A stretch of DNA of 64,000 nucleotides from Capnocytophaga ochracea DSM 7271 (lineage in GTDB: Bacteria > Bacteroidota > Bacteroidia > Flavobacteriales > Flavobacteriaceae), in the NCBI RefSeq assembly GCF_000023285.1, contig NC_013162.1:784501-848500 (forward strand), in the 5' to 3' direction. Within the stretch, counting starts at the first letter, position 1. Each line of letters starts with the position of its first letter. Positions 7,142-22,990 of this stretch are shown piece after piece. Made by a program: the position numbers and the translations under genes. The notes under the pieces were generated by a model, which saw only the letters and a list, made by a program, of their open reading frames with translations, ran no database searches and was not told where the DNA came from.

Positions 7142-7672
7142 TTAAATCTTCTGTTTAAAACGCTTGTATCTCCAATATACATAAGCTAAAACTACGAGCA
7201 GTAACAACCAAAGAATATACCTTAATGGTGTACTTTGGGTGTGCTTTCGTATTTGCTCAGCTTGCTGTATTTCGTGCTTTCGAACTTCATTTTGAACACT
7301 TGCGTAGGATTGCTTATAAAGAGTAGTATCAGCCTGCTGTAAGCTCTTAGAATGGGCTCTGATAGCTTTAATCTTTACCTTGCCATTGCGTACCCTTATA
7401 GTCTCTCTATTAGCGTCCCGAGTGTGGGTATAGGTGAGTTCTTTAGCATTGCCAAGGCTGTCTTTGTCGTTTTCGAGTTCAATCTCGAAAGACGTGGCAG
7501 ACAGGTCAAACCATTCAGACTTATGAGACTGATGAACAAAGAGCTGGGAGCTATCTTTATTGGTGATAAAGTGCTCTTTCTGGACTTGCCTTTGTGTGTA
7601 GGTTTCTACTTTTTTGGTTCTGCAACCAATCACTGACAAAAGGAGTAACATCAATAATAAAAATCTTTTCAT
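7142..7672 (-). CDS. Putative unimolecular spanin: lipoprotein with C-terminal membrane segment
   Basis: I did not recognise a family, but the architecture is distinctive. An N-terminal lipoprotein signal ends LLSVIGC (Cys17). About 130 hydrophilic, charged residues with helical/coiled-coil character follow, then a single C-terminal transmembrane segment (ILWLLLLVVLAYVYW) and a basic tail. A lipid anchor at one end and a membrane helix at the other can bridge outer and inner membranes, as in the one-protein spanin of phage T1 (gp11). It lies 6 bp downstream of the endolysin gene, where phage lysis genes usually sit. Expected role: joining the two membranes so that tail particles can be released. 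The alternative is an ordinary envelope protein. Function is inferred. Confidence 0.55.
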   Translation of the reverse strand: MKRFLLLMLLLLSVIGCRTKKVETYTQRQVQKEHFITNKDSSQLFVHQSHKSEWFDLSATSFEIELENDKDSLGNAKELTYTHTRDANRETIRVRNGKVKIKAIRAHSKSLQQADTTLYKQSYASVQNEVRKHEIQQAEQIRKHTQSTPLRYILWLLLLVVLAYVYWRYKRFKQKI

Positions 7673-7678
7673 ACATAT

Positions 7679-8179
7679 TTATTTCGCTTGTTCAATCATT
7701 TTAATCACTTTTTTCAAAGTATCCGCATAGTTAGGAGCGGTAGCGTAACCCGCTTTAGCAACCTCCTCTGCAAACTTATAGGGGTCACTTTTCACTTTCA
7801 ATGCCTCTGCATAGCGTTCGTTTTTGATGAAGAATTGAGCGTGGTCAGTGAAACTCTCTTCTGGGGTATCGTACTTCCTAAACCAATCCCTCACCACGTA
7901 CAAATATTTGCCGTCCGCACGCTTAGTAATGCTGATAATCTCAGGAAAAAGTCCCTTTGTTACCATAGGCACAGAAAGTACCTCCGTAGTACGCACTAAC
8001 TGCTTCTTACTTGCAGGCGTATCCTTACTAGCTTTCACGCCGAACATCATATTACCGGGCACATTCTTACCCCAGCCCGTCTCTAATGCCGATTGTGCCA
8101 ATATAAATAGGTGTGATATTCCCGTTTTACGCTGAGTCTCGAGTGCGTAAAGCTTGTATTTTGTTATAAATTCTTTCAT
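7679..8179 (-). CDS. Glucosaminidase-domain endolysin
   Basis: This is a peptidoglycan hydrolase of the FlgJ/LytG-type beta-N-acetylglucosaminidase family, probably the lysin that frees the tail particles. The domain covers nearly the whole protein: ISHLFILAQSALETGWGK carries the catalytic-type Glu, MFGVKA follows, and the C-terminal part (YAEALKV, AEEVAKAGYATAPNYA) is typical of the fold. The start is taken at an internal ATG (8177-8179) giving MKEFITKYK and 166 residues. The frame stays open to an ATG at 8345-8347, but the extra 56 residues look unlike the family and would leave only 4 bp to the fibre gene. It has no signal peptide, so export would need a holin or other route. Confidence 0.82.
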   Translation of the reverse strand: MKEFITKYKLYALETQRKTGISHLFILAQSALETGWGKNVPGNMMFGVKASKDTPASKKQLVRTTEVLSVPMVTKGLFPEIISITKRADGKYLYVVRDWFRKYDTPEESFTDHAQFFIKNERYAEALKVKSDPYKFAEEVAKAGYATAPNYADTLKKVIKMIEQAK

Positions 8180-8351
8180 TTGCTTAATTAATGTGAATAT
8201 AGAGCGAGGGCTATAGCCGTTGCCTTCTAGACTTATGATGAATATTAACGAAAAGATAATATTAGTGGAGGGAGTTGAGCTCTTGGTTGTTTTTTCGAAA
8301 GGCACTATATAGCTGAGAGTAAATAATTTGATGATGTTTTTTCTCATTTTT

Positions 8352-9683
8352 TTAGAGTTTATAAATATTTTTAGTACTAATTATTGGAGCATTGAAAACG
8401 ACAGAAACATATCCCCCTCCTTCTTCAACATTTGATATATATCCTTTTATACTATAACATAATAGAGCATATTTTATCATATAAATACTTTTTGCTTCCG
8501 CTGGAAGTTCAATTGTCATTCTCGAATTAAAAGGATAATTAAGGGTAAATTTATTCATATTATCAGTACCTTCTATATCTTGAGATAATACAATTGCTAA
8601 TAAAGATAAGTGTGATGAAAGATTATTTTGCTTTTTCAAAGTTATAGGTTCTTTTTCAAAAGAAAAACAAATGTTTTTATCATCTGTTTGAATATCTTTT
8701 AAAGGGACTGCTACATAATAAAAATTTTCATAACCTGACATTTGAAAAGAAATTTCTACTTCTTTATTAAACTCAGATTTTATGTAATAATTAGAAAAGT
8801 CTGTTTTTGAAAATGGTTCAACAATTATATCTTTATCGAATTGCTCAATAAAAACAGTACCGTCATTGAGCTTTTTTAGTAGTACTTTAGAACCTCTTGC
8901 ACCAATAATAGGAGGGTCTCCAAAGAATTTATCTACCTTTATTGTCTTAGGAACAGGTTTAAAATTATAAATCTCTACTGCAGAACCGTTGGGTAGAGCA
9001 GTTATATCAATATCGCCATCAGGATAAGATTCCGTTAGGTAATACTTTTTTATTTCGTCACCTACACCAAAGTTAAGCAGTGGTTTTCTCTCTTCAAAGA
9101 ACCCTAGGCTCTCTAACTTGTTCTTTAGCGGTGTAGTAAAATCGTTAGAAGATAGCCCTTTCCCGTCTTCTTTGTCTACTTTTTTAGTAAGTAATGTTTG
9201 AAGATTTTTATTAGATTTCACTTGGGTTGCGATTTCCTGCAGGGTGTCAAAGTCGGTGTCATCTACGGAGAGGGTCGTCTCTACCTGACCCATTTTGGTT
9301 TGAAGACTGTCGATAGCGTCTTTGAGCTCCTTGCCCGTTCCCTCGTATCCTCCTTTTGGTAATAGTTCTGAAGTATCAGTAGGTTGCAGAGTGTCTAACT
9401 TTTGTTTGTAGTCGTTAGTAAAGTCATTAGAACTTAATTCTTTCCCCTCTACTTTGTCCACTTTTTTGTCAAATAACACCTTATGTGCCTGTGTATCGTT
9501 TAGGTGATTGCTCAATTGTTCAGCTGAAGCTGTACCTTCTACGAGTTTATCCAAGCCTTCTACACTTGCCATTGGTATCTTCTCGCTCTTATGCCAAAAA
9601 CTATCTAGCCAAGCCCAAAATTGCTCTTGCGTTGGTTTTTTAAGGTTAGAAAACCACTGCTTTAAAGTTTCTATTGCTGTCAT
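8352..9683 (-). CDS. Tail fibre protein
   Basis: This is the probable receptor-binding fibre of the contractile tail. The N-terminal half holds two copies of a common phage fibre motif: KKVDKVEGKELSSNDFT near residues 73-89 and KKVDKEDGKGLSSNDFT near 167-183, each followed by a K.KL.(T/S)L stretch. The C-terminal half (after about residue 195) has no recognised domain. Its DNA (about 8.35-9.06 kb) is visibly more AT-rich than the N-terminal part, which suggests an exchangeable tip that sets target specificity. It lies between the collar gene and the endolysin, the usual end of a tail operon. There is no dedicated fibre chaperone nearby. Confidence 0.75.
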   Translation of the reverse strand: MTAIETLKQWFSNLKKPTQEQFWAWLDSFWHKSEKIPMASVEGLDKLVEGTASAEQLSNHLNDTQAHKVLFDKKVDKVEGKELSSNDFTNDYKQKLDTLQPTDTSELLPKGGYEGTGKELKDAIDSLQTKMGQVETTLSVDDTDFDTLQEIATQVKSNKNLQTLLTKKVDKEDGKGLSSNDFTTPLKNKLESLGFFEERKPLLNFGVGDEIKKYYLTESYPDGDIDITALPNGSAVEIYNFKPVPKTIKVDKFFGDPPIIGARGSKVLLKKLNDGTVFIEQFDKDIIVEPFSKTDFSNYYIKSEFNKEVEISFQMSGYENFYYVAVPLKDIQTDDKNICFSFEKEPITLKKQNNLSSHLSLLAIVLSQDIEGTDNMNKFTLNYPFNSRMTIELPAEAKSIYMIKYALLCYSIKGYISNVEEGGGYVSVVFNAPIISTKNIYKL

Positions 9684-9700
9684 ATCGTTTAGTTTTTAAA

Positions 9701-10558
9701 TTAAAATCCTACATATTCAATAAACTGTACCACACGGTATGGAGGCATATTGTTGTGAGGCTGGTCGCCACCCGTATTGGATGTATGGGTTTCAGGCATT
9801 CTATTGAGATTCAGCATCCATCCTCCACTACCTCCATTTTCTTCGGCACCATCGCCATATACACCTACTACAAGGTTAGAGTATTTATAATTATGGTTGT
9901 GTTTTGGCATTTCGTCAATAGTAAGTTGATGTTCAAACTCACCTCCTGCATAACCTATTTCGTGTAATTTATATTTCATAAGATTACTTAATTGTATTCC
10001 TATATTAGATTTTCCTATGGGAAATTTTCCTCGTAAAGGTTCATACTCTCGCCAGCCTTCTGGTAAAGGAATGTTAGCTGGTTTTCCCCATATTGCCACC
10101 AACCCCAAGGGTACCGTTTTCTTTACGTGCTCTTCTAATTTCTCCAAGCGTTTCAGCAAAGAGGTTTCTTCTGTAAAAGATTTCTCTTCTATTTGTCTGT
10201 TGTTTAACACTCGTCTGAAGCTCTCCCACGGATAACTCTTTGTACTACTGCCAAAAGTAGCTACTTTCTCCACAAGCACTGTTTTCTGTGAGCCGTCTTC
10301 AAAAATTTTAGATGTATTCACTTCCTTAATGAATACGTGAGAGCCAAGTGTCGTACCCTGAAAAGGGTATATTTCTCCTTCAATGGCTACTACTCCGTCT
10401 GACACCGTGTTCCCTACTACTTCACACCCCGAAAGAATAATTAAATCTCCTGAAATACCACTCATTGCATTGAATATCTTATAAGCATTCTGCATATAAC
10501 TTAATACATCGGTAGTTAGTGGGAAACCTCCCGTTTGGTTTACATTAATACTGTTCAT
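9701..10558 (-). CDS. Phage tail-collar domain protein
   Basis: This is a short tail fibre or collar protein. Its C-terminal half is a phage tail collar domain: VAIWGKPANIPLPEGW, then LRGKFPIG, then the histidine-rich EMPKHNHNYKY, and finally HNNMPPYRVVQF at the end. The first 140 residues are an unrecognised assembly region. The neighbours, a baseplate J/I pair on one side and a longer fibre on the other, place it at the baseplate periphery. The histidines in the HNHN and HNN motifs may bind metal, as in other collar proteins. Domain call firm, precise structural position inferred. Confidence 0.8.
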   Translation of the reverse strand: MNSINVNQTGGFPLTTDVLSYMQNAYKIFNAMSGISGDLIILSGCEVVGNTVSDGVVAIEGEIYPFQGTTLGSHVFIKEVNTSKIFEDGSQKTVLVEKVATFGSSTKSYPWESFRRVLNNRQIEEKSFTEETSLLKRLEKLEEHVKKTVPLGLVAIWGKPANIPLPEGWREYEPLRGKFPIGKSNIGIQLSNLMKYKLHEIGYAGGEFEHQLTIDEMPKHNHNYKYSNLVVGVYGDGAEENGGSGGWMLNLNRMPETHTSNTGGDQPHNNMPPYRVVQFIEYVGF

Positions 10559-10564: not shown

Positions 10565-11059
10565 CTATACTTCTATAATATATCGTTTACTTGCTAATTT
10601 GTAAAAGTCTATTAGGGCTTCTATCTCAAAGAAACGGTACTTACCTATTTCACTTGTAGGAATCTTCTTCGCCTCCCATATCTCCAAAGGTATTTTTACG
10701 ATAAAGTCTACTCCTGTATCGCTGTAATCTACCTCACGATGTAAATACATAGTCCCTAAAAACTTCGGTTTTTGTTCTCCTTCAGTATAAAGATACTGTC
10801 CTTTGTACTGATTGCCGTCCCATATGCGTATGCGCCGTTGCTCAATGTCGAATGCATCATTTAGCGCTTTGCGTAAGTAACACACTTGCCCATTCAGTCC
10901 AAGTTTCTTAATATCCAAATATCTCTTCTGAATAAAGTCATAATACAACTGACTGATAGGAGCACTAAGCGTTCTTATCCATCCTACCATTCTTGCCTTT
11001 CGCAAAAAAGAAGGTATAAGTAGAATGACCAATTTTTCTATTTTGAAATTAAATATCAT
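10565..11059 (-). CDS. Baseplate protein in tail protein I / Mu gp48 position
   Basis: I do not recognise a clear family from the residues. Its place is informative: it starts inside the end of the baseplate J gene (4-bp overlap) and is followed 6 bp later by the collar gene. In P2- and Mu-like phages this slot holds tail protein I/gp48, which links the baseplate wedge to the fibres. The 164-residue protein is basic at the N terminus (SFLRKARMVGWIRTL) and has a mixed alpha/beta look with WDGNQYKGQYLY in the middle. Function rests on synteny. Confidence 0.5.
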   Translation of the reverse strand: MIFNFKIEKLVILLIPSFLRKARMVGWIRTLSAPISQLYYDFIQKRYLDIKKLGLNGQVCYLRKALNDAFDIEQRRIRIWDGNQYKGQYLYTEGEQKPKFLGTMYLHREVDYSDTGVDFIVKIPLEIWEAKKIPTSEIGKYRFFEIEALIDFYKLASKRYIIEV

Positions 11060-11898
11060 TTTGTGATGTATTTTATTTGTGAAGCATTCCAGTCTACCTC
11101 AAAGTAACCACTTTGCGGTATTTGGGTAACTCCTATGTTTTGTAATGCTCCATAGCCTTTGGTCTCGGGGTCTATCCACGCTGTTTTGAGTTCTTTTAAG
11201 TGGGGTATTTTCACCCCATTGGCTTGTTGCAAAGCGTCTACAAGGTGCGCTACAATAAGTTCACCGTTAAAAGGTAAGTTTTTAAGATAACCCTCTATGG
11301 CTTCTTGTATAGGGCGTTTGCCGTAAAGCACATCGCTTCCATTACTATCTAATACTAACGGGTCGTAATACACATCAAGGTTCAGAACAAGCTTATCAGG
11401 CAGATAATTAATAACCGTAGTGCGTACTCCAGCATCTTTAATTTCTGATAAATAACCGCTAAAGGCATTTTGTTCATCTGCTGTAATAGGCTGTAATCGT
11501 CCCCCGTTTTCAGTGGCTATCTTTACTATCAACCTACCGTCATTACTCTCCACCACTGCCGAGTATTTTATAATCTTACTCGCCTCTACCTGTTCCTTTG
11601 TCTTATCTTTGTTGTTAAACTTATCGCTGTCGGGTAAGAGGTCAAAACCATACTGAAAGGCAAGTGCTTTACTTCTATACCACCGTGCAGTATGAGGTTT
11701 TAATTCAGTAAGGCGTTTATCAATATCTGTCCTATGTAAGTCAAATAACTTTTCTAAGCTCCAAATAGCTACCGAGATAATATAAACCCACAGTCGCCAT
11801 ATAGCTACTCTTGAGTTTGAGTTAAGTCCGTTTAGAGCTTCTTCTCGCTCTTTCGCATTATAGATAATCTGTTGTATTTCTTGTATTGTACGTGCCAT
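11056..11898 (-). CDS. Baseplate J-like protein (Mu gp47-like wedge)
   Basis: This is a wedge component of the contractile baseplate. At 280 residues it is shorter than P2 gpJ plus Mu gp47 types but keeps the expected features: an N-terminal helical region (IQEIQQIIYNAKEREE), a central segment built of beta strands (VVESNDGRLIVKIATENGG), the stretch LVLNLDVYYDPLVLD and a helical IQEAIEGYLKNLPFNG section followed by an IVAHLVDALQQANGV helix. That strand-helix pattern is typical of baseplate J proteins in Bacteroidota phages. The gene overlaps the next one by 4 bp, as expected for a translationally coupled baseplate set. Confidence 0.7.
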   Translation of the reverse strand: MARTIQEIQQIIYNAKEREEALNGLNSNSRVAIWRLWVYIISVAIWSLEKLFDLHRTDIDKRLTELKPHTARWYRSKALAFQYGFDLLPDSDKFNNKDKTKEQVEASKIIKYSAVVESNDGRLIVKIATENGGRLQPITADEQNAFSGYLSEIKDAGVRTTVINYLPDKLVLNLDVYYDPLVLDSNGSDVLYGKRPIQEAIEGYLKNLPFNGELIVAHLVDALQQANGVKIPHLKELKTAWIDPETKGYGALQNIGVTQIPQSGYFEVDWNASQIKYITK

Positions 11899-11926: not shown

Positions 11927-12238
11927 TTACTGTCCGTCGTGACTCACGACAAAATCTAAGTTTATCGCCCATATGCTAATACCTTCTTGGCGTTCGCTTA
12001 TTCTTTTGTCCTCTTGCGTAAAAGCAGTTGCAGGCTGTATCTTCTTTGCGATGTAGTAGGTCAAAATATCTTTATTAGTGAATGATTCTGTAGGTATTGT
12101 TAATACTTTTCCTGCTAACACATCATCGGTAATACTCAAATTGTTGAGCATTGCCAATTCAAAGATGCTTTCAATAGTCCCTGTGTGCTGTAAAGCAAGG
12201 TCTAAAAGACTCTGATTATGTAAAACTACTACTTGCAT
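11927..12238 (-). CDS. LysM-domain tail adaptor protein
   Basis: This small protein has a LysM-like fold: VLHNQSLLDLALQHTGTIE, then IFELAMLNN and VLAGKVLTIPTE, which match the repeated asparagine/leucine pattern of LysM. In contractile tails and phage tails (P2 gpX, gp53-like and Bacteroidota homologues) LysM proteins sit between the tail tube end and the baseplate. The gene overlaps the preceding coiled-coil gene by one base. Whether it binds peptidoglycan or only structural partners cannot be told. Confidence 0.65.
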   Translation of the reverse strand: MQVVVLHNQSLLDLALQHTGTIESIFELAMLNNLSITDDVLAGKVLTIPTESFTNKDILTYYIAKKIQPATAFTQEDKRISERQEGISIWAINLDFVVSHDGQ

Positions 12239-12549
12239 TATTCTTTTGATTTTCCATTTAGTTGCTTGTATTTCTTTAATTCAGTTAATAGCCCTTCAAC
12301 AGAGTTTTCTAAATCTTTAATACGCTGATTTGCTTTTTTGAGCTCCTCAATAGCACTTGCGTATTTAGCCCCTAAATCTTCTATCATTTCTCGATAGATT
12401 TTCACGGCTTTATCCACATTCTCAAGTTCGCTGGTCTGTAGTTCCATACGTTGCTTAGGTCTACCAAAGAACCAACCCACTACTCCCGATAGTACCATTC
12501 CTATAAACGATACAAAATGCTCTTTAAGTCCTTCTATGATTATTCCCAT
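12238..12549 (-). CDS. Small membrane-anchored coiled-coil protein, possible holin-like
   Basis: I do not recognise a family. The sequence shows one N-terminal transmembrane segment (VSFIGMVLSGVVGWFFG), a basic RPKQR boundary, and then a long charged heptad region (residues about 45-95) that looks coiled-coil. Its size (103 residues) and single membrane helix would suit a holin or a membrane-tethered lysis accessory, but it is encoded inside the baseplate set, far from the endolysin. Its stop overlaps the start of the LysM gene by one base. Confidence 0.45.
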   Translation of the reverse strand: MGIIIEGLKEHFVSFIGMVLSGVVGWFFGRPKQRMELQTSELENVDKAVKIYREMIEDLGAKYASAIEELKKANQRIKDLENSVEGLLTELKKYKQLNGKSKE

Positions 12550-12577: not shown

Positions 12578-12799
12578 CTAATTAATCGTTCCTTTTCCCA
12601 TACCAGTAGTAACTCCTGTATAAGTGCCTGCCAGTACAGGTATGCCCGTTTGCACTATTACCTCTCCACTCTTTACATAAGCTTCAATGAGAGAGGCAAG
12701 TCGTTCGGCATATTCTTCCATTCCTGCTTCTGTTTTAGTAAGCATTTCTTGTTGCAGGCGTATAATCCCTGCTTTTAGTGCTTGTTTATCTAATGCCAT
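12578..12799 (-). CDS. Small conserved-looking tail-operon protein, function unknown
   Basis: This 73-residue protein is not recognised. The first 45 residues are helical and charged (IRLQQEMLTKTEAGMEEYA), and the C terminus is rich in Gly and Thr (TYTGVTTGMGKGTIN). It sits between the spike gene and the coiled-coil membrane protein, immediately downstream of a 38-bp perfect palindrome. Position suggests a baseplate or assembly role, but nothing in the sequence proves it. Confidence 0.5.
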   Translation of the reverse strand: MALDKQALKAGIIRLQQEMLTKTEAGMEEYAERLASLIEAYVKSGEVIVQTGIPVLAGTYTGVTTGMGKGTIN

Positions 12800-12862: not shown

Positions 12863-13354
12863 TTACTGTAATAATTTGTTTATCTTATTATTAATCTCCT
12901 CAAACTTCATCACGTTGTTCGGGGAAAAATTCCCTACACCCGAAGGTGTTTGTATCACCGCGTTTTTAAGTTCCGTTAGAAGCTCGTTTAAAAGACTTTT
13001 TAAATTCACTTCCCCGCGTTGCAAGTGCAAGCCTGCTTTGTCTATTGTAAGCTGTGTTTCTTCTATACGTAAGCTCACGCTCTCTATCTCACTATAAGCC
13101 ACCACGTAGTAGCGGTTCTCGTCTTCCCCTATCGAAGCTATCAACACACTGCTCCCCTCTTTGGGGAAGAGATAAAACCGCTCAGCATTATCGTTAATCA
13201 CCGAAGCTAAGCGCACGGTATATTGTAGCTCGTCGTCCTTCACCTCACACGTGCCCTTTTCTTTGTCTACCGATACCACTTCTACGGCTATGGTAGGTGT
13301 TTTGCGTCTTCCTATCTGCCTAAGCCCTTCTGCTAATTCTCTGTCTATACTCAT
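12863..13354 (-). CDS. Baseplate spike protein (gpV / Mu gp45-like)
   Basis: This is the likely membrane-piercing tip or its base. It has an N-terminal OB-fold-like region: TIAVEVVSVDKEKGTCEV, then a hydrophobic strand pair ending in FPKEGSSVLIASIGEDENRYYVV. A short beta-rich stretch follows (SVSLRIEETQLTIDKAGLHL), with a helical tail. The size (163 residues) suits a short gpV/gp45-like spike lacking a long beta-helix. The gene overlaps the hub gene by 4 bp, the usual hub-spike pairing. There is no visible HxH iron-binding tip motif at the C terminus, so another protein may cap it. Confidence 0.65.
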   Translation of the reverse strand: MSIDRELAEGLRQIGRRKTPTIAVEVVSVDKEKGTCEVKDDELQYTVRLASVINDNAERFYLFPKEGSSVLIASIGEDENRYYVVAYSEIESVSLRIEETQLTIDKAGLHLQRGEVNLKSLLNELLTELKNAVIQTPSGVGNFSPNNVMKFEEINNKINKLLQ

Positions 13355-14316
13355 AATTTTGCTCCTATGGTTACTTGTCGACGTGCGCCATTACGTCCGA
13401 AGGTAATCTCTACTTTCTTAATAAAGTAACGTTCGTCTATCTCTTTCAATTCATCATCTATCATATGAGCTTGCATACCCCTCGTCGCAAAAGGTACCAA
13501 GAAACTTGTTATAGAGCCGTCAAAGCCATCGTATTTCAGCCTTTCCATCTCCGCTCTTGCCATTTCTCGTAACTTAGGTTCCTCACTCACTACCGAAGTA
13601 TGAAAGGTTCTTAGCTCACCTTCGGGGTCGCCCTCTTCCACTGTTTTCTTTTTGTTATTTTTGTCGATATAAGTGTAACGTACTTTCAGTTTGCGTTCCT
13701 CCTTAGTCCTATACTCCAAATCATTGGCAACAATGTTATAATTGAGGTCATAGCGTGCCGTTTGCCCTATATTGGTAAGCTCTGAAAGTCCTGCGTACAG
13801 CTTGCCTTCATCATTGATAAACACGCTTAGCCTAAACTCTTCTTTCAGCTTCTCCAATACCTGCGTACCGTTCGCATTGCGAATAATCCACTGGTCTAAC
13901 TGTATTTCTGGAATATTGTCCGCCAGCACAATGGGCGTGTCCTTCACAACTTCCTGCAATACTTCTCTAAGTGTTGTTTTTTGCCACGACTTGCTGATAT
14001 TTTTACGTCTAAGTAAGTACATAGCGTCTTCACACTCTATGCTTACAGGAATGCTCGGTTTAACCTTCTTTACATAGCCTTCAAACTCCACTCCGCTATA
14101 CACACCCTCATAAGCAAGGGTAACACTCACTTTGTCACCCACCTTGATAGCCTTTTCAGTATAAAGGCTTTCGCCCCCTTTGGCTACTTTAAAATGGGTT
14201 GGCAGTTCAATCGTACAGGTGTCCGCCAATTCGTCTACCGATTTGGTGATTTTAACGTTATGTACTGCTCTAAAAGTGTAATCACCTATCTTTATAATCG
14301 CTTGTAATACAAACAT
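13351..14316 (-). CDS. Baseplate hub protein (gpD / Mu gp44, gp27-like)
   Basis: This is the hub that connects the tail tube to the spike. The N-terminal part reads as beta-strand domain (KIGDYTFRAVHNVKITKS, DTCTIELP, VGDKVSVTLAYEG). It is followed by the characteristic helical insertion TTLREVLQEVV and a middle segment with LEKLKEEFRLSVFINDEGKLY, a pattern found in late-control D/gp44 proteins. The C-terminal strand segment ends RRQVTIGAKL. The length of 321 residues is normal. The stop codon overlaps the spike start, and its own start shares one base with the stop of the upstream 198-residue gene. Confidence 0.72.
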   Translation of the reverse strand: MFVLQAIIKIGDYTFRAVHNVKITKSVDELADTCTIELPTHFKVAKGGESLYTEKAIKVGDKVSVTLAYEGVYSGVEFEGYVKKVKPSIPVSIECEDAMYLLRRKNISKSWQKTTLREVLQEVVKDTPIVLADNIPEIQLDQWIIRNANGTQVLEKLKEEFRLSVFINDEGKLYAGLSELTNIGQTARYDLNYNIVANDLEYRTKEERKLKVRYTYIDKNNKKKTVEEGDPEGELRTFHTSVVSEEPKLREMARAEMERLKYDGFDGSITSFLVPFATRGMQAHMIDDELKEIDERYFIKKVEITFGRNGARRQVTIGAKL

Positions 14317-14915: not shown

Positions 14916-16529
14916 TTACACTGTTTGCATTTGGTTTACACTGTTCACAATTCTCAAAAGCTCTTCTTTCAGTTGCGCCCCAAAGTTTTCCACCCCTTCC
15001 CGTACCGATGATACGTACACTTTGGTATCCGTGCCCAAGTTGCCTATCTGTATGTTGATATGCGTTTGACGGGTACCTCCCGTTACGATATTATCTTTGG
15101 TTTTATTACCCATCTCTGAAAAAGGTGTGCTGGCAATAGGTGTTGCTAACGGACTTGTTTTTTGTCCCGTTTGCCCTATGCCTAACTTGCCCATTAGCCC
15201 GTCTTTCACACTCGAAAGGCTCTTAAACTCCAAAGAGTTCCACGCTTTACCAAAATATTCTTTTGCTTTAGCTCCTGCCTCACCTGCTTTCTTATAGCCT
15301 TCTGCTACCGATTTGGCACGTTCTTGCAAGTCGTTTTGTATTTGGCTTATCATCGCTTGGTTCTCTTTACTATCCCCCAAACCTACAGCCTCTTTAAACT
15401 TATACCAAGCCAACTTACAGAGGTCTATACCTGCCATAAAAGCATTGACCGCCGTATTCCAATGGGCTTTGTAGGTGAGAATAAAAGCTTCCCACAAGTA
15501 TTTCATTCCTTGCACAGTGTTATCCCACGCTTTGCCCCAACCGCTCACGCCTACAATACAATAAGTGATGATAGCAATAAGAGCCACAATACCTGCTATA
15601 ATCAATACAATAGGATTAGCTAAAAAAGCTAGGTTCGTTTTAATTACTGCCCACGATAGTCGGTTCTGCCACGCCGCAGCAATAGCCATATAAGTGTTAT
15701 GCAATGTAATAGCTGTAATAAATACTCCTAACACTCCTGCAATACCAAGGATTATGGGGTTACCCTCTTGAAGCTTTTGGATAAACCAACTCAATCCGTC
15801 ATTCAAAGCTCCAAATACCATCGTAGAAAGTGCTACCAACGGAATCAGCAACGGACTTATAACCTCATATACTTTTACAGCTATAGATTGTATCGAAGCC
15901 ATTAAAACTGCAAACCTGCCTTGTAGAGTGCTGTTCACATTCTCAGCTCCTTGATAAAAATCTCCTTGTGCGTCGGTTGCCCATCGGAAAGCCTCAGCCA
16001 ACTCTCTTGCCGAAATTCTTCCTTTGTCCATTCGCTCTTGCAGAGAGCTCATAGTCTCGCCCGTACGCTCACTTATCACTTGCAAAGGATTAAATCCTGC
16101 CTGTTGCATCTGTGTGAGTATAGCTTCTTGCAACTTCCCTTGTGTGGTCACTTTGGCAAAGGCAGTAGCCAAGGTTTCTATCTTTTTGCTATCCCCCAAG
16201 GCAATATCTCCTATTTGTTTGAGCATTCCTAATGCTCCTTCAGGAAGCAAGCCTGCTCCCATCAAACTCTCTTGAGCCTTCACAAGCGATGGTACTTCAT
16301 AAGCCGTTTGCCCACTGTATTGTGTGAGATTCTGATGTATTTCTTGTGCCTTTTGCATATTACCTTGCACAAAAGTAGCCAGACTCATCTTTTGGGTGTC
16401 TGCCGTAAAACCTTGCTTAAATATTTTCTGTAAAGACGAGATAGGGTCTATAATGTTATTAACCACCTCCTTTAACCTTTTAGTCTGATCAAAGAAAGAA
16501 GATATCGTGTTTTTTGGATTTTCTGCCAT
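14916..16529 (-). CDS. Tail tape measure protein
   Basis: This is the scaffold that sets tail length and is released through the tube on firing. It has the expected layout: an N-terminal helical region, a tape-measure-type domain (LVKAQESLMGAGLLPE, LGDSKKIETLATAFAKVT, AGFNPLQVISERTGETM), then several hydrophobic helices in the middle (FLANPIVLIIAGIVALIAII and others) and a helical C terminus. At 537 residues it would set a tail of roughly 80 nm if the usual 0.15 nm per residue applies, which is shorter than Mu. It follows the tail chaperone frameshift region and precedes the hub genes, as in contractile tails. Confidence 0.85.
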   Translation of the reverse strand: MAENPKNTISSFFDQTKRLKEVVNNIIDPISSLQKIFKQGFTADTQKMSLATFVQGNMQKAQEIHQNLTQYSGQTAYEVPSLVKAQESLMGAGLLPEGALGMLKQIGDIALGDSKKIETLATAFAKVTTQGKLQEAILTQMQQAGFNPLQVISERTGETMSSLQERMDKGRISARELAEAFRWATDAQGDFYQGAENVNSTLQGRFAVLMASIQSIAVKVYEVISPLLIPLVALSTMVFGALNDGLSWFIQKLQEGNPIILGIAGVLGVFITAITLHNTYMAIAAAWQNRLSWAVIKTNLAFLANPIVLIIAGIVALIAIITYCIVGVSGWGKAWDNTVQGMKYLWEAFILTYKAHWNTAVNAFMAGIDLCKLAWYKFKEAVGLGDSKENQAMISQIQNDLQERAKSVAEGYKKAGEAGAKAKEYFGKAWNSLEFKSLSSVKDGLMGKLGIGQTGQKTSPLATPIASTPFSEMGNKTKDNIVTGGTRQTHINIQIGNLGTDTKVYVSSVREGVENFGAQLKEELLRIVNSVNQMQTV

Positions 16530-16553: not shown

Positions 16554-16748
16554 TTATTCTCCGTACGATTCGCTCTCCTTTTGGCGAATCCATTCCAGTT
16601 CTTTCACTCGCATAGCCCACTCAGTATCATTGAGGGCATCGGGATTGGCAATGTGCATATAGTAACGCAGTGAGGCATTGGTAATACGCAACCAATCCCG
16701 AGGCTCGTCAATTTCCGCACTGCTTAAAGCTTTTCCAGGGTAGCTTCC
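16554..16748 (-). CDS. Frameshift extension of the tail assembly chaperone (-1 frame)
   Basis: This reading frame has no ATG of its own at the beginning and is too short for usual gene calls. It is open from just after a TAA at 16749-16751 down to a TAA at 16554-16556, and overlaps the end of the upstream chaperone gene in the -1 frame. Beyond the zero-frame stop it encodes a believable protein segment (LSSAEIDEPRDWLRI, then a helix with NDTEWAMRVKELEW). The slip would occur in the 22 nt before the zero-frame stop. The best candidate is GGAAAAG at 16730-16736, read G GAA AAG. A chaperone pair made by slippage is a conserved trait of long-tailed phages (lambda G/GT; Mu and P2 equivalents). An independent internal start at the ATG in YYMH is the alternative. 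Confidence 0.6.
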   Translation of the reverse strand, partial: GSYPGKALSSAEIDEPRDWLRITNASLRYYMHIANPDALNDTEWAMRVKELEWIRQKESESYGE

Positions 16749-17014
16749 TTAATCTGTATCAATTCGCCAAGCTTACTGCTTGCCGAAAGGAAAAGTGCAT
16801 CATCGGTCTTAATCTCTTCATCTCCTCCCAACCAACAGTTGGTAAGGATAGCCTCATTAAACTTCATCGGGTCTTTCGTTGCCAATGTCGAAGCATAACT
16901 CAGGGTAGCGCGGTCAGGCGTTCTCAAGTATGCCACTTTGTCATCTACTCGCAATACAAATACTTCTTTGTACTTGGCTTTCCATTGTTTGATTTGTTCT
17001 TTTGTTACGTCCAT
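16724..17014 (-). CDS. Tail assembly chaperone, short form
   Basis: This 96-residue protein lies exactly between the tail tube and tape measure genes, the position of the G protein that coats the tape measure during tail assembly. The sequence is helical and acidic in its second half (FNEAILTNCWLGGDEEIKTDD, then SSKLGELIQIKEATLEKL) and begins with a short strand region (YKEVFVLRVDDKVAYLRTP). Its end overlaps an open -1 frame that would make a longer GT-like form. The family assignment is by position and that overlap. Confidence 0.65.
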   Translation of the reverse strand: MDVTKEQIKQWKAKYKEVFVLRVDDKVAYLRTPDRATLSYASTLATKDPMKFNEAILTNCWLGGDEEIKTDDALFLSASSKLGELIQIKEATLEKL

Positions 17015-17113: not shown

Positions 17114-17530
17114 CTACGATTGGCGTTTTACATCAGTGAAGATAATAGGAAGCTCTACAACCATATTTTTATCCCCCTGCTTCATCGCCTTTTTCACTTC
17201 TGTAAATTCCACATTCTTGAGAATATCGGTTACTATTTGTCCACCTTCTGAGGGCACGTAAGCAACAACCAAGTCAAAGTTAAGGTTCAGAATGTCGTTG
17301 TTTTTGGCATCACGCGTCATTGCTTCCAATTCACTTTGCCAAATGCTCAACTTCCCCTCAAAACTGTGATTACCTCTTACAATGCTCAAAGGTTTACTCC
17401 CACGTCCGTAAAGCGCTGATTTCTCTTTTTTCTCAGTGTATTCTACTTCTGTCACCCCGGCAATAATACGCCCTCCAAAGGCAATCGAAATATCGCTCCA
17501 CGCATACTGTTTACTACTAAATGTTCCCAT
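17114..17530 (-). CDS. Tail tube protein
   Basis: This is the inner tube of the contractile tail. The 138-residue sequence opens GTFSSKQYAWSDISIAFGG and has the tube-protein pattern of alternating beta strands: VTEVEYTEKKEKSALYGRG, then GNHSFEGKLSIWQSELEAM, and a C-terminal strand region (NVEFTEVKKAMKQGDKNM, VVELPIIFTDVK). The GRGxKPLxI...G.....G motif is common to phage tubes. It sits directly downstream of the sheath gene, the standard order. Hcp-like and gp19-like tube proteins share this fold, so the exact family was not resolved. Confidence 0.75.
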   Translation of the reverse strand: MGTFSSKQYAWSDISIAFGGRIIAGVTEVEYTEKKEKSALYGRGSKPLSIVRGNHSFEGKLSIWQSELEAMTRDAKNNDILNLNFDLVVAYVPSEGGQIVTDILKNVEFTEVKKAMKQGDKNMVVELPIIFTDVKRQS

Positions 17531-17646: not shown

Positions 17647-18819
17647 CTAATTTTCTTCTTTCTTCGTGGTAAAACCAATATTCACCTCAATAAAATCAGC
17701 ATAACCCACAGGAAGGAGTTTTAATCCTACTACCACTTTACCTGTTTGCAACACCTTCTGTTCAGGGTCTATATTGATGTTCACTGCCGATAGCTCCCCT
17801 TTCGAAACCATTTCGCTCTGCAAAGTGCTCTCCAACTTGGTTTGCCAACTCTTGATAATAGCAGGGTGAATGCTTCCCTCTTCTGAAAGTAACACCTCAT
17901 CGCTTAATTCCTCTACCAAAGCCCCATAAGCAAGAAGTAACGCCTTGTCCATTACCAATCCGCTACTGAGACTCTTAAAATCATCAGTAGGTTTGGTAAG
18001 CGTATTATCTCCTGAAAAATAGTAGCCTGAACGCCCTACAAAGGTACGAAAGAAAATATACCCTTTGTCGTCTAAGGCGTCCCACTGGTCAGCTTTGCTG
18101 TCAATAGTAGTTCCGTCAGTAAAATAAGCCACCAATGGCAATACACTACCGTCCTTCACGCGGTGAATTTTTCGCTGTACGGGTATAGCACTCATTTTGC
18201 CTAAGAACAAACCTACTGATGCTTCTTTTTCCTTATCGTCATTACCGATAAAGCAAGCCACTTTGTTGAGTTCGTTTTCCGAAAAATTAGTAAGGTCAGC
18301 TACTTTGCCGTTCCAGCTGTTGCCCGATACCACTACTCTAAAAGGCATATACTTCTTTTCAAAGTGCTCAGCAATAGCTTGTGCTTTCACTACGGCTGTT
18401 TGTACATCAGTATCTAAGCCCGCGGTGATAGTTTCGCTACCAGTTGCTTTTTTCACCACACCCAATACCCTAATAGCACCTTTGGCATCAGCTATAAGAG
18501 TTGGAGCAAAAGCACCATCTTTGTCAAGCATTGCGGTCATAGTCGTAGCGTCCGATATGAGCATTACCCACAGAGGTGTACCCGTAGAAGCTTGTTCGTA
18601 AAATGCTTTAATGTGCTTGTAAGCAAAAGCGTTTTCAGCCTCCGAAATACCTAATGCTACGGCTTCGTTTAAGGAAAATACTTGGTACGATTTCCCGAGT
18701 TCTACCTTACTGGCTACTCCACTACCTGTAATAATAAGACCAGTAACTTTTTGAATGTTATTGCCTGTACGGTTCATACCATCCTTGGCAATGTTAAATA
18801 ATACTTTTGGTAATCCCAT
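17647..18819 (-). CDS. Contractile tail sheath protein (DUF2586-like)
   Basis: This is the sheath whose contraction drives the tube. The 390-residue sequence matches the DUF2586 type used by Bacteroidota tails: N-terminal VLFNIAKDGMNRTGNNI, then VTGLIITGSGVASKVELGK, the helix AYKHIKAFYEQA followed by STGTPLWVMLISDAT, and the C-terminal core strand-helix segment (AIIKSWQTKLESTLQSEMV, then VGLKLLPVGYADFIEVNIGF). The FIEVNIGF end is the part that forms the sheath handshake strand in other sheaths. Presence of a sheath shows the tail is contractile, so an R-type rather than F-type particle. Confidence 0.8.
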   Translation of the reverse strand: MGLPKVLFNIAKDGMNRTGNNIQKVTGLIITGSGVASKVELGKSYQVFSLNEAVALGISEAENAFAYKHIKAFYEQASTGTPLWVMLISDATTMTAMLDKDGAFAPTLIADAKGAIRVLGVVKKATGSETITAGLDTDVQTAVVKAQAIAEHFEKKYMPFRVVVSGNSWNGKVADLTNFSENELNKVACFIGNDDKEKEASVGLFLGKMSAIPVQRKIHRVKDGSVLPLVAYFTDGTTIDSKADQWDALDDKGYIFFRTFVGRSGYYFSGDNTLTKPTDDFKSLSSGLVMDKALLLAYGALVEELSDEVLLSEEGSIHPAIIKSWQTKLESTLQSEMVSKGELSAVNINIDPEQKVLQTGKVVVGLKLLPVGYADFIEVNIGFTTKKEEN

Positions 18820-18953: not shown

Positions 18954-19517
18954 TTAAAGGCTTTCCTCTTTTTTAGAATTGTTACCAGGGCGGTCAGTAG
19001 CGGTTACTATTATTTTATCACCTGTAAGCGAGGTATTAGTAACCGTAGTGGTGTACACCCATTTGCCCTGTACAAGAGTGGCGCTACCTTCTTCCACAAG
19101 AGTAGCATCGTGGTCTTCAATACGCACTTTCACAGCTACGACCTTAAAAGCATCACCCGCCTCTATCATTATTTTCTCTCCTGTGGCACTACCTGTATAG
19201 CCTGAATGGTCTATATGGGTAATTTTAGGAGCGCGCAAATAGTCAGTCATCGCCATATTATAAGCCGATACATTCCTGCGCTTTTTAGCCTCTGCTGTAT
19301 AATCCTCTTTTAGCGAAGGGTCTTGCAAAGCGTTTTTGGCATATGCCGAAGCGCGTACAAATCTCTCTTGTTGTGCTTTCTGAGAAGCACTGGGAGCTTT
19401 GGTGTGTGAAGGAGGGGTCGCGACAATAGTTTCTCCTCCGCGTTGGCGAAATACAAACACTTTCCCTACTTTACCACTAAGCCCTGTAATGGCATAGTTT
19501 GATTTACTTTTTCCCAT
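18954..19517 (-). CDS. Unrecognised structural protein upstream of the sheath gene
   Basis: This 187-residue protein is not recognised with certainty. Its first half contains a conserved-looking motif (SNYAITGLSGKVGKVFVFRQ) and basic helical stretches (KKRRNVSAYNMAMTDYLRA). The second half reads as a beta-rich Ig-like domain (KITHIDHSGYTGSATGEKI, WVYTTTVTNTSLTGDKIIV). It is the first gene of the structural block, 134 bp upstream of the sheath gene. It might be a tail terminator, decoration or secreted cap. I would not call it a head protein. Confidence 0.5.
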   Translation of the reverse strand: MGKSKSNYAITGLSGKVGKVFVFRQRGGETIVATPPSHTKAPSASQKAQQERFVRASAYAKNALQDPSLKEDYTAEAKKRRNVSAYNMAMTDYLRAPKITHIDHSGYTGSATGEKIMIEAGDAFKVVAVKVRIEDHDATLVEEGSATLVQGKWVYTTTVTNTSLTGDKIIVTATDRPGNNSKKEESL

Positions 19518-19736: not shown

Positions 19737-20018
19737 ATGTGTAAAATGAAAGATTTACTCTTAATCAAAAACGATTTGCACCTTGCTGAAGGTGATTTTC
19801 AAGTAGGCTTATCTGAGCCCCAACATCAAAAAGCTATTCTTACTGCCGAAAAAGGACAGTGGAAAGAGCACCCCGAAGTGGGGGTGGGTATTGCCCAAAT
19901 GCTCGCCGACGACCTTTATACCGAAATGCTTATTGAGGTAAAAAAGCAATTGGAGTACGACGGTATACCCGTGAAAAACGTAACCCTTACCCCTCAGAGC
20001 TCACTGCTGATAGACTAA
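19737..20018 (+). CDS. Baseplate wedge protein, gp25 / Mu gp46-like
   Basis: This 93-residue protein reads like the small baseplate wedge component: NDLHLAEGDFQVGLSEPQHQ, then AILTAEKGQWKEHPEVGVGI, then KKQLEYDGIPVKNVTLTP, the GD..(V/I)G...Q...L....G....P..GVG pattern of gp25/gp46 proteins in Bacteroidota phages. An ATG at 19746 (MKDLLLI) is an equally good start. It is transcribed opposite to every other tail gene, an odd arrangement for a stoichiometric baseplate part. A weak promoter-like GACCTTTG precedes it. Confidence 0.55.
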   Translation: MCKMKDLLLIKNDLHLAEGDFQVGLSEPQHQKAILTAEKGQWKEHPEVGVGIAQMLADDLYTEMLIEVKKQLEYDGIPVKNVTLTPQSSLLID

Positions 20019-20038: not shown

Positions 20039-20251
20039 CTATCTTTCGGCATAACCGCCCTGAAAATAAAGTATTGCTTCAATAGTACGAGGTGATAAAA
20101 ACATAATGTTTGCCACCTCCTCTACAAGAGCATCTATCTTCCACTGAGGGTGCTTGGCGCTCAGTTCTTCAAAAAGTTGACGCACTTTTTCATTGCGTTT
20201 TTGCAAGCGCTCTTTGCGCTGTTGTGTATTATCACATTTCATATGTTTCAT
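20039..20251 (-). CDS. Small HTH-like phage protein
   Basis: This 70-residue protein is basic at its N terminus and has a helix-turn-helix-like C-terminal part (PQWKIDALVEEVANIMFLS, then PRTIEAILYFQGGY). Proteins of this size with the same layout are frequent beside Gam in Mu-like phages of Bacteroidota, which fits its neighbour. It could be a small transcription regulator of the tail genes. It faces the gp25-like gene tail to tail. Confidence 0.5.
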   Translation of the reverse strand: MKHMKCDNTQQRKERLQKRNEKVRQLFEELSAKHPQWKIDALVEEVANIMFLSPRTIEAILYFQGGYAER

Positions 20252-21017: not shown

Positions 21018-21320
21018 TCACATACCCAGCTGTGAGCCCTCGCTGGCTTTATCTTTTACCTTATAAAGCGGGTGTTTTCTTACTGGTTGCCACTCCCTTT
21101 GCTCGTCTAGCCAAAGCAGGTGTCGCTCTTCGTCGTATTTAAAGATGGGGGCACGCCAACCGTTCTGTTCCACCCACGTTTGTAGTTCTTGCACGCGAGC
21201 AGGTACCTCATCCGTACGTCCTGCGCGGTATTGTGAGGTTTGTAGTCTTTCCTCAAAAGTAAGCACCTGCAAAAAACTATCAAGAGCAAGCGCTTGGGTA
21301 TATTCTAAAAATCTATTCAT
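21018..21320 (-). CDS. Unknown early-region protein
   Basis: This 100-residue protein is not recognised. It is tryptophan-rich in the middle (LQTWVEQNGWRAPIFKYDEE, then HLLWLDEQREWQPV) and otherwise charged. It follows the 65-residue gene and precedes the gam-like gene, so it belongs to the early block of a Mu-like element. The gap from 20870 to 21017 has no gene and only an AT-rich spacer. Confidence 0.5.
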   Translation of the reverse strand: MNRFLEYTQALALDSFLQVLTFEERLQTSQYRAGRTDEVPARVQELQTWVEQNGWRAPIFKYDEERHLLWLDEQREWQPVRKHPLYKVKDKASEGSQLGM

Positions 21321-21408
21321 TGTAATTTTTTTTGTTATTTGTTATTTTTCACTTTACTATTCACTTTTGCATCACTTTCCCTAATGCCTGAAACCTGATG
21401 CCTGAAAC

Positions 21409-21606
21409 CTAATCCCTATTCACTACAAGCCGTCCATATTTTTTCAGCTCACTCCACCAGTTCACCTTATGCCCACTAACTCTTCTGGGCAAATAGCGCA
21501 CAGGCTGATGATAACTTTTGGCTTTTTCTAACAACACAACCGCTTGCTCGCGGAGCTTGCGCTGTACATACTCATAGTCACTGACTTCATTTAAATGTAT
21601 TCTCAT
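21409..21606 (-). CDS. Small basic protein, first gene of the leftward block
   Basis: This 65-residue protein is not recognised. It is basic with an N-terminal helix (SDYEYVQRKLREQAVVLLEK) and Arg/Trp-rich end (YLPRRVSGHKVNWW). It is the first gene downstream of the divergent repressor control region, separated by about 450 bp, the position of early regulators in Mu-like phages. Evidence for its being expressed is positional only. Confidence 0.4.
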   Translation of the reverse strand: MRIHLNEVSDYEYVQRKLREQAVVLLEKAKSYHQPVRYLPRRVSGHKVNWWSELKKYGRLVVNRD

Positions 21607-22026: not shown

Positions 22027-22057
22027 CTCATTGTTCTATTCATTTTGTTTTACGGTG

Positions 22058-22088
22058 CAAAAATATAGGATATTTTCTACATTTCCAA
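22058..22088 (-). promoter_or_regulatory. Leftward promoter of the tail locus
   Basis: On the minus strand the box TATTTTTG (22058-22065) lies 20 bp from a TTG (22086-22088), exactly the Bacteroidota TTG-N20-TAnnTTTG form. It would start transcription leftward toward the Gam and tail genes and overlaps a long inverted repeat. Confidence 0.6.
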
Positions 22089-22103
22089 TTTTTTTGTAGA
22101 AAA
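22073..22103. promoter_or_regulatory. Inverted repeat, candidate repressor operator
   Basis: The arms TTTTCTACA (22073-22081) and TGTAGAAAA (22095-22103) are perfect 9-bp inverted repeats with a 13-bp spacer. The spacer contains the TTG box of the leftward promoter. A dimeric repressor bound here would block that promoter. It lies 54 bp upstream of the repressor start codon. Confidence 0.55.
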
Positions 22104-22156
22104 TTTTTTATGTTTTTGTCTATCTGATTAATTGTCAATAAAATATTTTTCTCAGT

Positions 22157-22990
22157 ATGTCAAATATTGTTAGTAGAGTAAAAGATTATATCGATTTCAA
22201 GGGATTATCGGTTAGAAAGTTTGAAGAGCTTGTGGGCTTTTCCAACGGTGCTTTTGCGACTCAGTATAAAAATAACAAGTCTATTGGAAGCGATAAAATA
22301 GAAAATATTCTACAATCTTTTCCCGAACTAAATGCTGAATGGTTGCTCACAGGTAAAGGTCCTATGTTAAAAAATAAGGAGATTGTCGAAACTCCCCGTG
22401 TAGAAATTATCAAACCTTTAAAAGTAGAAGGAAGAGATTTAACTCCCAAGGTGGTAGTGGTTGAAGAAGACGAACTTTTTAACCCCATACCCTTAGTGCC
22501 TATATACGCTCAAGCGGGCTATCTCAATGGTTATGAAGACCCCGAATACATAAAAGAACTCCCTATGTACAACCTTCCCGAAATGCGAAACGGCACTTTC
22601 AGAATGTTTCAAGTAAACGGACTCTCTATGTTCCCCACTCTGCAAGACGGCAGTTATGTGGTAGGGCAATTCGTCGAAAATTGGGAGTGGCTATCAGATA
22701 ACAGGGTGTGCGTAGTAGTTACAGAGCGCGACGGAGTGATTGTAAAACGGGTTTTAAACAAAATAAGAAAATATGGTAGTCTGTATTGCAAATCCGATAA
22801 TCGCGACTACCCGCATATTACCGTTAGAGCTGAAGATATTAAAGAAGTATGGGAATGTAAAATGCACCTCTCTTTCGAGTTCCTCGACCCTATCCCTGAG
22901 TACCAAAAAATTGCCGATTTAGAAGCCAACGTTCAGTTCCTAACCGAACGTGTAGAACAATTAGAACATCACAACAAACCCATTTTATAG
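22157..22990 (+). CDS. LexA/CI-type S24 repressor with HTH domain
   Basis: This is a phage-type repressor, transcribed away from the tail locus. Residues 1-65 form a helix-turn-helix (FEELVGFSNGAFATQYKNN, then ILQSFPELNAEWLLTGKGP). The C-terminal S24 peptidase domain has the catalytic Ser157 in GLSMFPTLQDG and Lys197 in GVIVKRV, and a likely self-cleavage site Ala120-Gly121 in YAQAGYLNG. Such repressors are cut with the help of activated RecA during DNA damage, so tail expression could be tied to the SOS response. The 277-residue length is normal, and the C terminus adds a short coiled coil. The inverted repeat at 22073-22103 is the candidate operator. Confidence 0.85.
   Translation: MSNIVSRVKDYIDFKGLSVRKFEELVGFSNGAFATQYKNNKSIGSDKIENILQSFPELNAEWLLTGKGPMLKNKEIVETPRVEIIKPLKVEGRDLTPKVVVVEEDELFNPIPLVPIYAQAGYLNGYEDPEYIKELPMYNLPEMRNGTFRMFQVNGLSMFPTLQDGSYVVGQFVENWEWLSDNRVCVVVTERDGVIVKRVLNKIRKYGSLYCKSDNRDYPHITVRAEDIKEVWECKMHLSFEFLDPIPEYQKIADLEANVQFLTERVEQLEHHNKPIL

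What the first reader, a model, noticed from the sequence alone, without database searches (positions are those of the whole stretch)
7142..22990. Headless contractile tail locus: candidate tailocin of a Capnocytophaga-like bacterium
The block encodes sheath, tube, tail chaperone, tape measure, hub, spike, wedge (gp25-like, J, I-like), LysM adaptor, collar, fibre, endolysin and putative spanin, all consistent with a complete contractile tail plus lysis. No portal, capsid, terminase, protease, integrase or transposase reading frame is seen between the Sus operon and trpS. An S24 repressor stands at the regulated end. This is the pattern of R-type pyocin-like tailocins, and the early Gam-like gene points to a Mu-like ancestor that lost its transposase and head genes. 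The usual alternatives are a decayed prophage or an extracellular injection system. The lack of AAA+ ATPase and toxin cargo genes argues against an injection system.
Basis: partly seen in the sequence, partly recalled or inferred. Interest (0 to 1): 0.92.

Follow-up and report, generated by a model that had tools for sequence, protein, structure and literature searches.

The report
Headless phage-tail locus in Capnocytophaga
This oral bacterium carries the contractile tail, release genes and switch of a Mu-like virus without its head or transposase, probably kept as a weapon against related bacteria, although it lacks the protein that usually caps such tails.

Summary
The observation largely holds. 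Window 7142-22990 encodes a contractile tail, lysis genes and an S24 repressor. No head, portal, terminase, integrase or transposase gene or remnant was found there, and no Mu-type portal in the closed 2.61-Mb genome.

The ancestor type is identified. Headed prophages of C. sputigena and C. leadbetteri have sheath and hub proteins about 90% identical. Headed relatives keep head genes in three blocks around two tail genes: p158, with a tail-terminator fold, and the wedge gp25. Six headless loci in three lineages lack all three blocks yet keep both genes in place, still inverted. The window keeps gp25 but lacks p158.

A tree needs at least five headed/headless changes, read as head losses. In two sister genomes most headless tail genes are under purifying selection. 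Three headless relatives still carry MuA and MuB.

Best reading: a Mu-derived R-type tailocin-like locus, probably independent of the Mu-derived tailocin of Pseudomonas syringae. The missing terminator leaves a recently broken tail locus as the serious rival. The searches listed found no description of it.

The parts
22157..22990 (+). S24-type repressor (HTH + peptidase S24). By eye it has the Ala-Gly, Ser (GLSMFPT) and Lys (VIVKRV) arrangement of self-cleaving repressors (motif recalled)
   Evidence: PF00717 8.6e-8, phrog_4 repressor 1.2e-19; 29% identical to fF4 repressor
22058..22118 (.). inverted repeat (24-nt arms, 83% complementary) between repressor and early genes; candidate operator
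   Evidence: function inferred from position only
21409..21606 (-). 65-aa early ORF, unknown
   Evidence: no family
21018..21320 (-). 100-aa early ORF; 28% identical to an early ORF of the MuA-bearing headless locus L022
20366..20869 (-). Mu Gam-like protein
   Evidence: PF07352 1.5e-36; 57% identical to Porphyromonas phage proteins annotated Mu Gam-like
20039..20251 (-). p70, early protein found in headed and headless relatives
19737..20018 (+). gp25-like baseplate wedge, kept in inverted orientation between the lost head blocks
   Evidence: phrog_120 0.0046; homologues in headed relatives; order
18954..19517 (-). 187-aa protein of a multicopy chromosomal Capnocytophaga family, where headed relatives have protease and capsid; not a known tail part
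   Evidence: 6 matches in own genome (itself included, two being adjacent pieces), 21 of 296 genomes; no match in phages or viral contigs; no tail protein in the 50 Foldseek rows shown
17647..18819 (-). tail sheath
   Evidence: PF10758 2.9e-50, phrog_907 2.7e-56
17114..17530 (-). tail tube
   Evidence: phrog_4579 2.3e-17; synteny
16724..17014 (-). tail assembly chaperone, short form
   Evidence: phrog_19076 6e-43, unknown function; position
16554..16730 (-). -1 frame extension of the chaperone (58 codons), reached at GGAAAAG before the short form's stop
   Evidence: 82-86% identical in L007, L008 and L016; related sequence in 15 of 16 loci searched
14916..16529 (-). tape measure protein
   Evidence: PF20155 5e-13, phrog_991
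14316..14912 (-). hub-region protein (DUF6046)
   Evidence: PF19512 1e-39, phrog_5233 baseplate hub
13351..14316 (-). baseplate hub (gpD-like)
   Evidence: phrog_4930 3e-107
12863..13354 (-). spike-like protein
   Evidence: phrog_5275 7.5e-35, unknown function; synteny
12578..12799 (-). 73-aa conserved tail-region protein
   Evidence: phrog_5576 3e-4, unknown
12238..12549 (-). one-TM coiled-coil protein at the holin position
   Evidence: 85% identical in the headed C. leadbetteri prophage; weak Rz-like hits
11927..12238 (-). LysM-like baseplate adaptor
   Evidence: phrog_975 0.042; homologues in relatives
11056..11898 (-). baseplate J-like protein
   Evidence: phrog_38413 1e-111, unknown function; 44% to fF4 gp43
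10565..11059 (-). gpI-like baseplate protein
   Evidence: 44% to fF4 gp44
9701..10558 (-). tail fibre protein A
   Evidence: phrog_5795 tail protein 5e-25
8352..9683 (-). tail fibre B, conserved N-terminus, little conservation beyond
7679..8347 (-). endolysin, glucosaminidase
   Evidence: PF01832 3e-27
7142..7672 (-). lipobox at N-terminus and TM at C-terminus: unimolecular spanin-like
   Evidence: sequence; 52% identical homologue near the end of the headed L007 and L008 prophages

Best explanation
A Mu-like contractile phage of the kind still present whole in C. sputigena and C. leadbetteri became fixed in this genome and lost transposase and head, keeping repressor, a few early genes, tail, tail-assembly chaperone, fibres and lysis genes. 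When DNA damage activates RecA, the S24 repressor cleaves itself (inferred), tails assemble, endolysin and spanin burst the producer, and the free contractile tails bind related cells through their fibres and pierce the envelope (inferred). It works like an R-type tailocin. Shown: gene content, homology, missing head genes, open frames, repeated headless states in relatives, purifying selection on most genes of one headless relative. Inferred: induction, particle formation, release and killing.
For: Tail, lysis and repressor genes open and close to full length. Head genes missing on both sides of a retained, inverted gp25. Frameshift chaperone intact. Sheath, hub and spike dN/dS 0.03-0.06 against headed relatives, in the range between headed relatives (0.01-0.08). 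At least five headed/headless changes on the tree. The headless loci of G102 and G236 share the left flank, all 21 element ORFs in the 20 kb fetched from G102 have an open partner, and dN/dS is 0.02-0.1 in sheath, tube, chaperone, wedge, spike and repressor. fF4, a headed relative, makes virions with contractile tails (PMC7761591, abstract and passages).
Against: No tail terminator in the locus or detected in the genome, whereas six of the eleven other headless loci keep p158 by profile (the five without are the L039-L043 type). gp25 and J have higher dN/dS against headed relatives (0.13-0.24 and 0.10-0.20) than headed pairs have (0.05-0.11 and 0.05-0.06), with dS near or at saturation: perhaps relaxed constraint. 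Only one genome of this species was seen. The window's dN/dS includes time before head loss. A chromosomal multicopy gene lies inside the operon. In the genus the headless state is seen in 1 of 20 genomes.
Confidence: 0.55

Rival explanations
1. A recently deleted prophage or an already broken tailocin: head, transposase and terminator were lost by deletion and the remaining open frames have not yet decayed.
For: Terminator not found; unrelated gene within the operon; somewhat raised dN/dS of gp25 and J; headless in 1 of 20 genomes of the genus; at a junction special to this genome.
Against: Losses on both sides of gp25 without a detectable remnant of a head gene; chaperone frameshift, lysis genes and repressor intact; a similarly pruned order arose elsewhere and is under selection there.
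Confidence: 0.33
2. An extracellular contractile injection system that delivers a protein cargo to bacteria or host cells.
For: Contractile tail without head; related loci L039-L043 have modular cargo-like proteins beside the same tail type.
Against: No AAA+ ATPase or cargo-like family hit among the 23 ORFs; lysis genes and phage-type repressor present.
Confidence: 0.07
3. The tail half of a two-part system: the tails join heads made by another phage or satellite in the same cell.
For: Transposase-bearing headless relatives would need some way to spread between cells.
Against: No Mu-type portal elsewhere in G000 or in F. hydatis G024 (other portal families were not searched); the terminator, where a head would join, was not found in the window.
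Confidence: 0.03

Closest known systems
R-type tailocin of Pseudomonas syringae (R-type syringacin; name recalled)
   Same: Mu-derived R-type tailocin, an origin independent of the P2-derived one of P. aeruginosa (passage of review PMC12090994; the primary paper is not held)
   Different: Pseudomonas host; activity shown there, not here. Its genes were not compared here; independence is inferred from the window's place among phages of Flavobacteriia
R2 pyocin, diffocin, monocin
   Same: Tail-like bacteriocins (recalled); their collars or caps share the fold of p158
   Different: Window lacks a recognisable p158; other gene content not compared
fF4 and other Winoviridae-type phages; prophages of C. 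sputigena and C. leadbetteri
   Same: Same sheath family and much of the tail order; repressor related to fF4's; sheath and hub about 90% identical in the two Capnocytophaga prophages
   Different: They have portal, terminase, protease and capsid; fF4 also has MuA and MuB
Headless loci of G102/G236, F. hydatis (L011), L021, L022, G040 (L051)
   Same: Same tail, no head genes found, gp25 inverted upstream of the sheath
   Different: All six keep p158; L011, L021 and L022 also keep MuA and MuB
Extracellular contractile injection systems of Bacteroidetes
   Same: Headless contractile tails in the same phylum (titles and abstract starts only)
   Different: The window has a lysis cassette and phage repressor, and no ATPase or cargo hit

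Membership tests
R-type tailocin | contractile tail gene set (sheath, tube, tape measure, hub, wedge, J/I, fibres) | tested here: met
   J and I by homology to unnamed fF4 proteins
R-type tailocin | no capsid, portal, packaging, replication or integration genes | tested here: met
   MuA profile control weak, protease/MuF/MuB without control
R-type tailocin | tail terminator / collar | tested here: inconclusive
   p158 homologue not found in locus or genome, but one search also missed the diverged one of headed G016 (L029), and an unrelated substitute cannot be excluded
R-type tailocin | lysis cassette for release | tested here: met
   glucosaminidase and spanin-like protein; holin only by position
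R-type tailocin | SOS-type control | not tested
   S24 repressor present; induction needs an experiment
R-type tailocin | DNA-free particles that kill related bacteria | not testable with these tools
   -
Mu-like / Winoviridae-type prophage | portal, terminase, major capsid | tested here: not met
Mu-like / Winoviridae-type prophage | MuA/MuB transposition genes (not all Winoviridae have them: pippi8-1 and FPSV-S1 gave no MuA hit) | tested here: not met
   no such Pfam or PHROG hit in the 23 ORFs scanned

The most novel reading that the evidence does not exclude
Mu-like contractile phages of Flavobacteriia repeatedly turn into headless killing tails by the same pruning: three head blocks are removed around two retained, inverted tail genes (terminator and wedge). 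Some headless forms (F. hydatis and two viral contigs) still carry MuA and MuB and would be self-transposing tailocins, an intermediate that could explain how tail weapons spread; the Capnocytophaga locus is a further, independent, later-stage case that has even dispensed with the ancestral terminator.
Probability: 0.4. Interest if true: 0.78.

Novelty: new member of a known kind. Interest (0 to 1): 0.55.

Why it matters
If functional, this is a narrow-range weapon of an oral commensal and opportunist. In the listings I saw, no title or abstract start described a tailocin in Capnocytophaga (10 of 20 papers listed), in Bacteroidota, in Flavobacterium or with transposable phages of flavobacteria (12 of 22 listed); contractile injection systems of Bacteroidetes are described. 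The headed, headless-with-transposase and headless-without-transposase states within one tail lineage make the route from phage to weapon directly testable, including which head-side genes must be kept.

Tried and rejected
PF04984 (another sheath profile) found nothing in the own genome: the sheath belongs to PF10758. PF09299 rang nowhere, controls included, so phrog_310 was used.

Same-site conservation: trpS was found in 20 of 20 genomes of the genus. In the 9 neighbourhoods fetched, none has the amylase or the tail locus within about 8 kb upstream. The amylase was found in 3 of 5 other genomes searched, on another contig or more than 250 kb from trpS in the record. No empty site could be read.

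More strains: a tape-measure search of viral contigs returned 4 loci, three of them the headed Capnocytophaga prophages already known and one other with terminase and capsid (L083); near-copies of the window's own genome may be left out by the tool.

That 18954-19517 is a collar was tested and not supported; its model is poor over the first 35 residues, and the 50 Foldseek rows shown are Ig-like and other domains at low TM-score. A PDB sequence search with p158 gave only E 0.28, with the repressor nothing.

Rows dropped: six IMG/VR loci that repeat genome loci (L014, L015, L017, L018, L020, L023) were left out from then on. The tree used 34 of the 39 loci; left out were L027 (distant), L042 and L043 (hub genes not in the fetched part), L055 (fragmentary) and L057 (hub genes not found). 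L046 (G420), a 6-kb contig with a capsid gene, was not counted as headless. The tree warns of long branches (L056; L048 and 1 more with L052 and 1 more) and odd composition of L051, whose place is less sure. In one search the tube could be compared with L016 and L028 only, and many dS values are saturated.

Odds: after rechecking (gp25 and J), I lowered the main reading from 0.58 to 0.55 and raised the broken-locus rival from 0.30 to 0.33.
Full report
WHAT IS THERE. The window is bases 784501-848500 of a closed 2,612,925-bp genome. Between an alpha-amylase gene ending at 7074 and trpS at about 23909 lie 23 ORFs that I listed, covering 88% of 7142-22990. PHROGs and Pfam name sheath, tape measure, two hub proteins, a tail/fibre protein, Gam, endolysin and an S24 repressor with strong scores. 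The tube's best PHROG carries the label 'major head protein', but the match covers only the first third of that profile; the second best is a tail protein and synteny agrees. Spike, J and gpI rest on homology to other phages' unnamed proteins.

NO HEAD. tblastn of head proteins from fF4, pippi8-1, FPSV-S1 and MMP7 found none in the window but found them in headed relatives. Profiles of portal (25 sequences), terminase (24), capsid (25), protease (25), MuF (22), p158 (24), MuA (4) and MuB (5) against six-frame stretches of 20 or more residues in 5001-26000 gave nothing better than E 0.02. With L007 left out, the portal, terminase, capsid and p158 profiles find their targets in L007 at 7e-66 or better. 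The MuA profile is weak (E 0.036 for the true one in L022); protease, MuF and MuB had no such control. PF06074 (Mu portal) is absent from the whole genome, and phrog_310 (transposase) gives one weak match with two stops more than 600 kb away.

ANCESTOR TYPE. L007 (C. sputigena), L008 (C. leadbetteri) and L016 (viral contig) hold sheath, hub and spike proteins 88-91% identical to the window's, with portal, terminase, protease and capsid genes beside them. The other tail and lysis proteins that match are 39-85% identical, some over part of their length, so the cassette is mosaic. As far as fetched, headed L010, L047, L009 and L028 have the order p70 (seen in L047 and L009) / MuF, portal / p158 / terminase / gp25, all but p70 on the opposite strand, then protease, capsid / sheath, tube, hub genes and onward. 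The window has p70, inverted gp25, sheath, tube, hub, spike, LysM, J without the head genes and without p158. The C. sputigena type has its hub genes in the head block, so the window more likely descends from the commoner order (inference).

HEADLESS RELATIVES. Six loci share p158 / gp25 / sheath with all three head blocks missing: L011 (F. hydatis), L021, L022, L044 (G102), L045 (G236) and L051 (G040). L011, L021 and L022 keep MuA and MuB (phrog_310 3e-33 and phrog_296 2e-33 in L011); in F. hydatis the tail is followed by fibre-like ORFs and no head gene was matched in the 40 kb fetched. In L044, L045 and L051 no MuA or MuB was matched; L044 keeps DUF3164, listed among genes of fF4-like prophages in PMC7761591 (passages). 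Five further headless loci, L039-L043, are more distant, carry cargo-like ORFs and show no p158 by profile, although L039 has a 191-aa ORF before the sheath with weak similarity (4e-5) to pippi8-1 gp31, which the profile counts as p158. In an order-wide sample PF10758 was found in 23 of 395 genomes; 14 of those 23 have a Mu portal. The nine without are the window's genome, G102, G236, G040, G206, G216, G241, G246 and G420; G420's locus is a 6-kb contig with a capsid gene and is not counted as headless. G178 has a headless copy and a second copy near a portal.

WHAT p158 IS. Its predicted structure (pLDDT 77) matches the Mu tail terminator (9khy, Z 13.4, 137 residues), the lambda terminator (3fz2, Z 12.5), the R2 pyocin collar (6u5f, Z 12.2), the diffocin collar and the monocin cap. 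Six headless loci therefore keep the head-side gene that a free tail would be expected to need. The window does not: no p158 in the locus or, at this sensitivity, in the genome (which also missed the diverged p158 of headed G016). This is the main evidence against a working tail.

HOW OFTEN. On a tree of sheath and two hub proteins (34 of 39 loci), the headed/headless label needs five changes, and starred branches force five: window; L011+L021; L022; L044+L045+L051; and L039-L041. The count gives no direction; loss is my reading, because headless loci nest among headed ones and keep the inverted gp25 of the headed order.

SELECTION. Window against headed relatives: dN/dS 0.03-0.06 for sheath, hub and spike (headed pairs 0.01-0.08), 0.08 for the chaperone where measurable (headed 0.09-0.13), 0.12-0.16 for tape measure (headed 0.09-0.16), 0.22-0.25 for the spanin-like protein (headed 0.27). 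For gp25 (0.13-0.24 against 0.05-0.11) and J (0.10-0.20 against 0.05-0.06) the window's values are higher; dS is large or saturated. All this covers time before and after head loss. G102 against G236 is the cleaner test: both are headless, share the left flank (84% over 5.3 kb including the repressor), and flanking genes have dS about 1.35. Within the element dN/dS is 0.093 sheath, 0.027 tube, 0.016 chaperone, 0.087 gp25, 0.049 spike, 0.026 repressor; 0.17-0.18 hub and fibre, 0.22 LysM-like, 0.28 terminator, 0.46 tape measure; hub2 saturated. Sheath and tube dS (0.4-0.6) is below the flanks', so exchange cannot be excluded. The right flank could not be compared because the G236 contig begins in fibre genes.

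CONTROL AND ASSEMBLY. The chaperone's -1 extension (58 codons) begins at the same GGAAAAG as in L007, L008 and L016; related sequence was found in 15 of 16 loci. The repressor has by eye the residues of self-cleaving S24 repressors (motif recalled), and an inverted repeat lies upstream of it. These fit induction but do not show it.

LITERATURE. A review passage states that P. syringae R-type tailocins derive from Mu and P. aeruginosa's from P2 (PMC12090994). fF4 is a spontaneously induced phage resembling transposable phages, with a contractile tail of about 95 nm (PMC7761591, abstract and passages). Mu-like structural proteins in all Winoviridae, with MuA in two environmental genomes, are in PMC8776804 (passages). 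Searches: Capnocytophaga with tailocin (one paper, in which C. ochracea is a tree row, passages), with Mu-like prophage, C. ochracea with bacteriocin, Flavobacterium with tailocin, Bacteroidota with tailocin, Mu-like with tailocin and transposase, flavobacteria with tailocin or transposable phage. Their listings showed no description of this locus or of headless Mu-type elements in this group; listings and passages were read, no whole paper.

VERDICT. A Mu-derived, R-type tailocin-like locus, confidence 0.55; a recently broken one, 0.33.

Noticed in passing
L039-L043 (G178, G246, G241, G206, G216): Another headless locus with the same sheath family in another genus of the same family: repressor 45-48% identical to the window's, tail genes, and modular proteins with a shared N-terminus (MIIKNH/MIVKNH...DTS) and variable C-termini followed by small ORFs, like cargo/immunity pairs of an injection system. 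Four ORFs tried gave no Pfam hit above its cut-off; an M15 peptidase ORF is also present.
   Followed up: partly
L011, L021, L022: Headless tail elements that still carry MuA and MuB: possible transposable tailocins.
   Followed up: partly
window 18954-19517: Member of a multicopy chromosomal Capnocytophaga protein family (6 matches in this genome, itself included; 21 of 296 genomes) inside the tail operon.
   Followed up: yes
window 21836-21998 and 23186-23892: Arrays of an 8-base period (TCTAATTT-like) and other short direct repeats in the intergenic stretches beside the repressor.
   Followed up: no
window 7074-7142 and 22990-23890: The locus lies at a junction special to this genome: in the three other Capnocytophaga genomes with both genes, trpS and the amylase are not neighbours.
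   Followed up: partly
L007, L008, L016: In the C. sputigena-type prophage the hub-spike genes lie in the head block on the opposite strand, and gp25 follows the tape measure.
   Followed up: no
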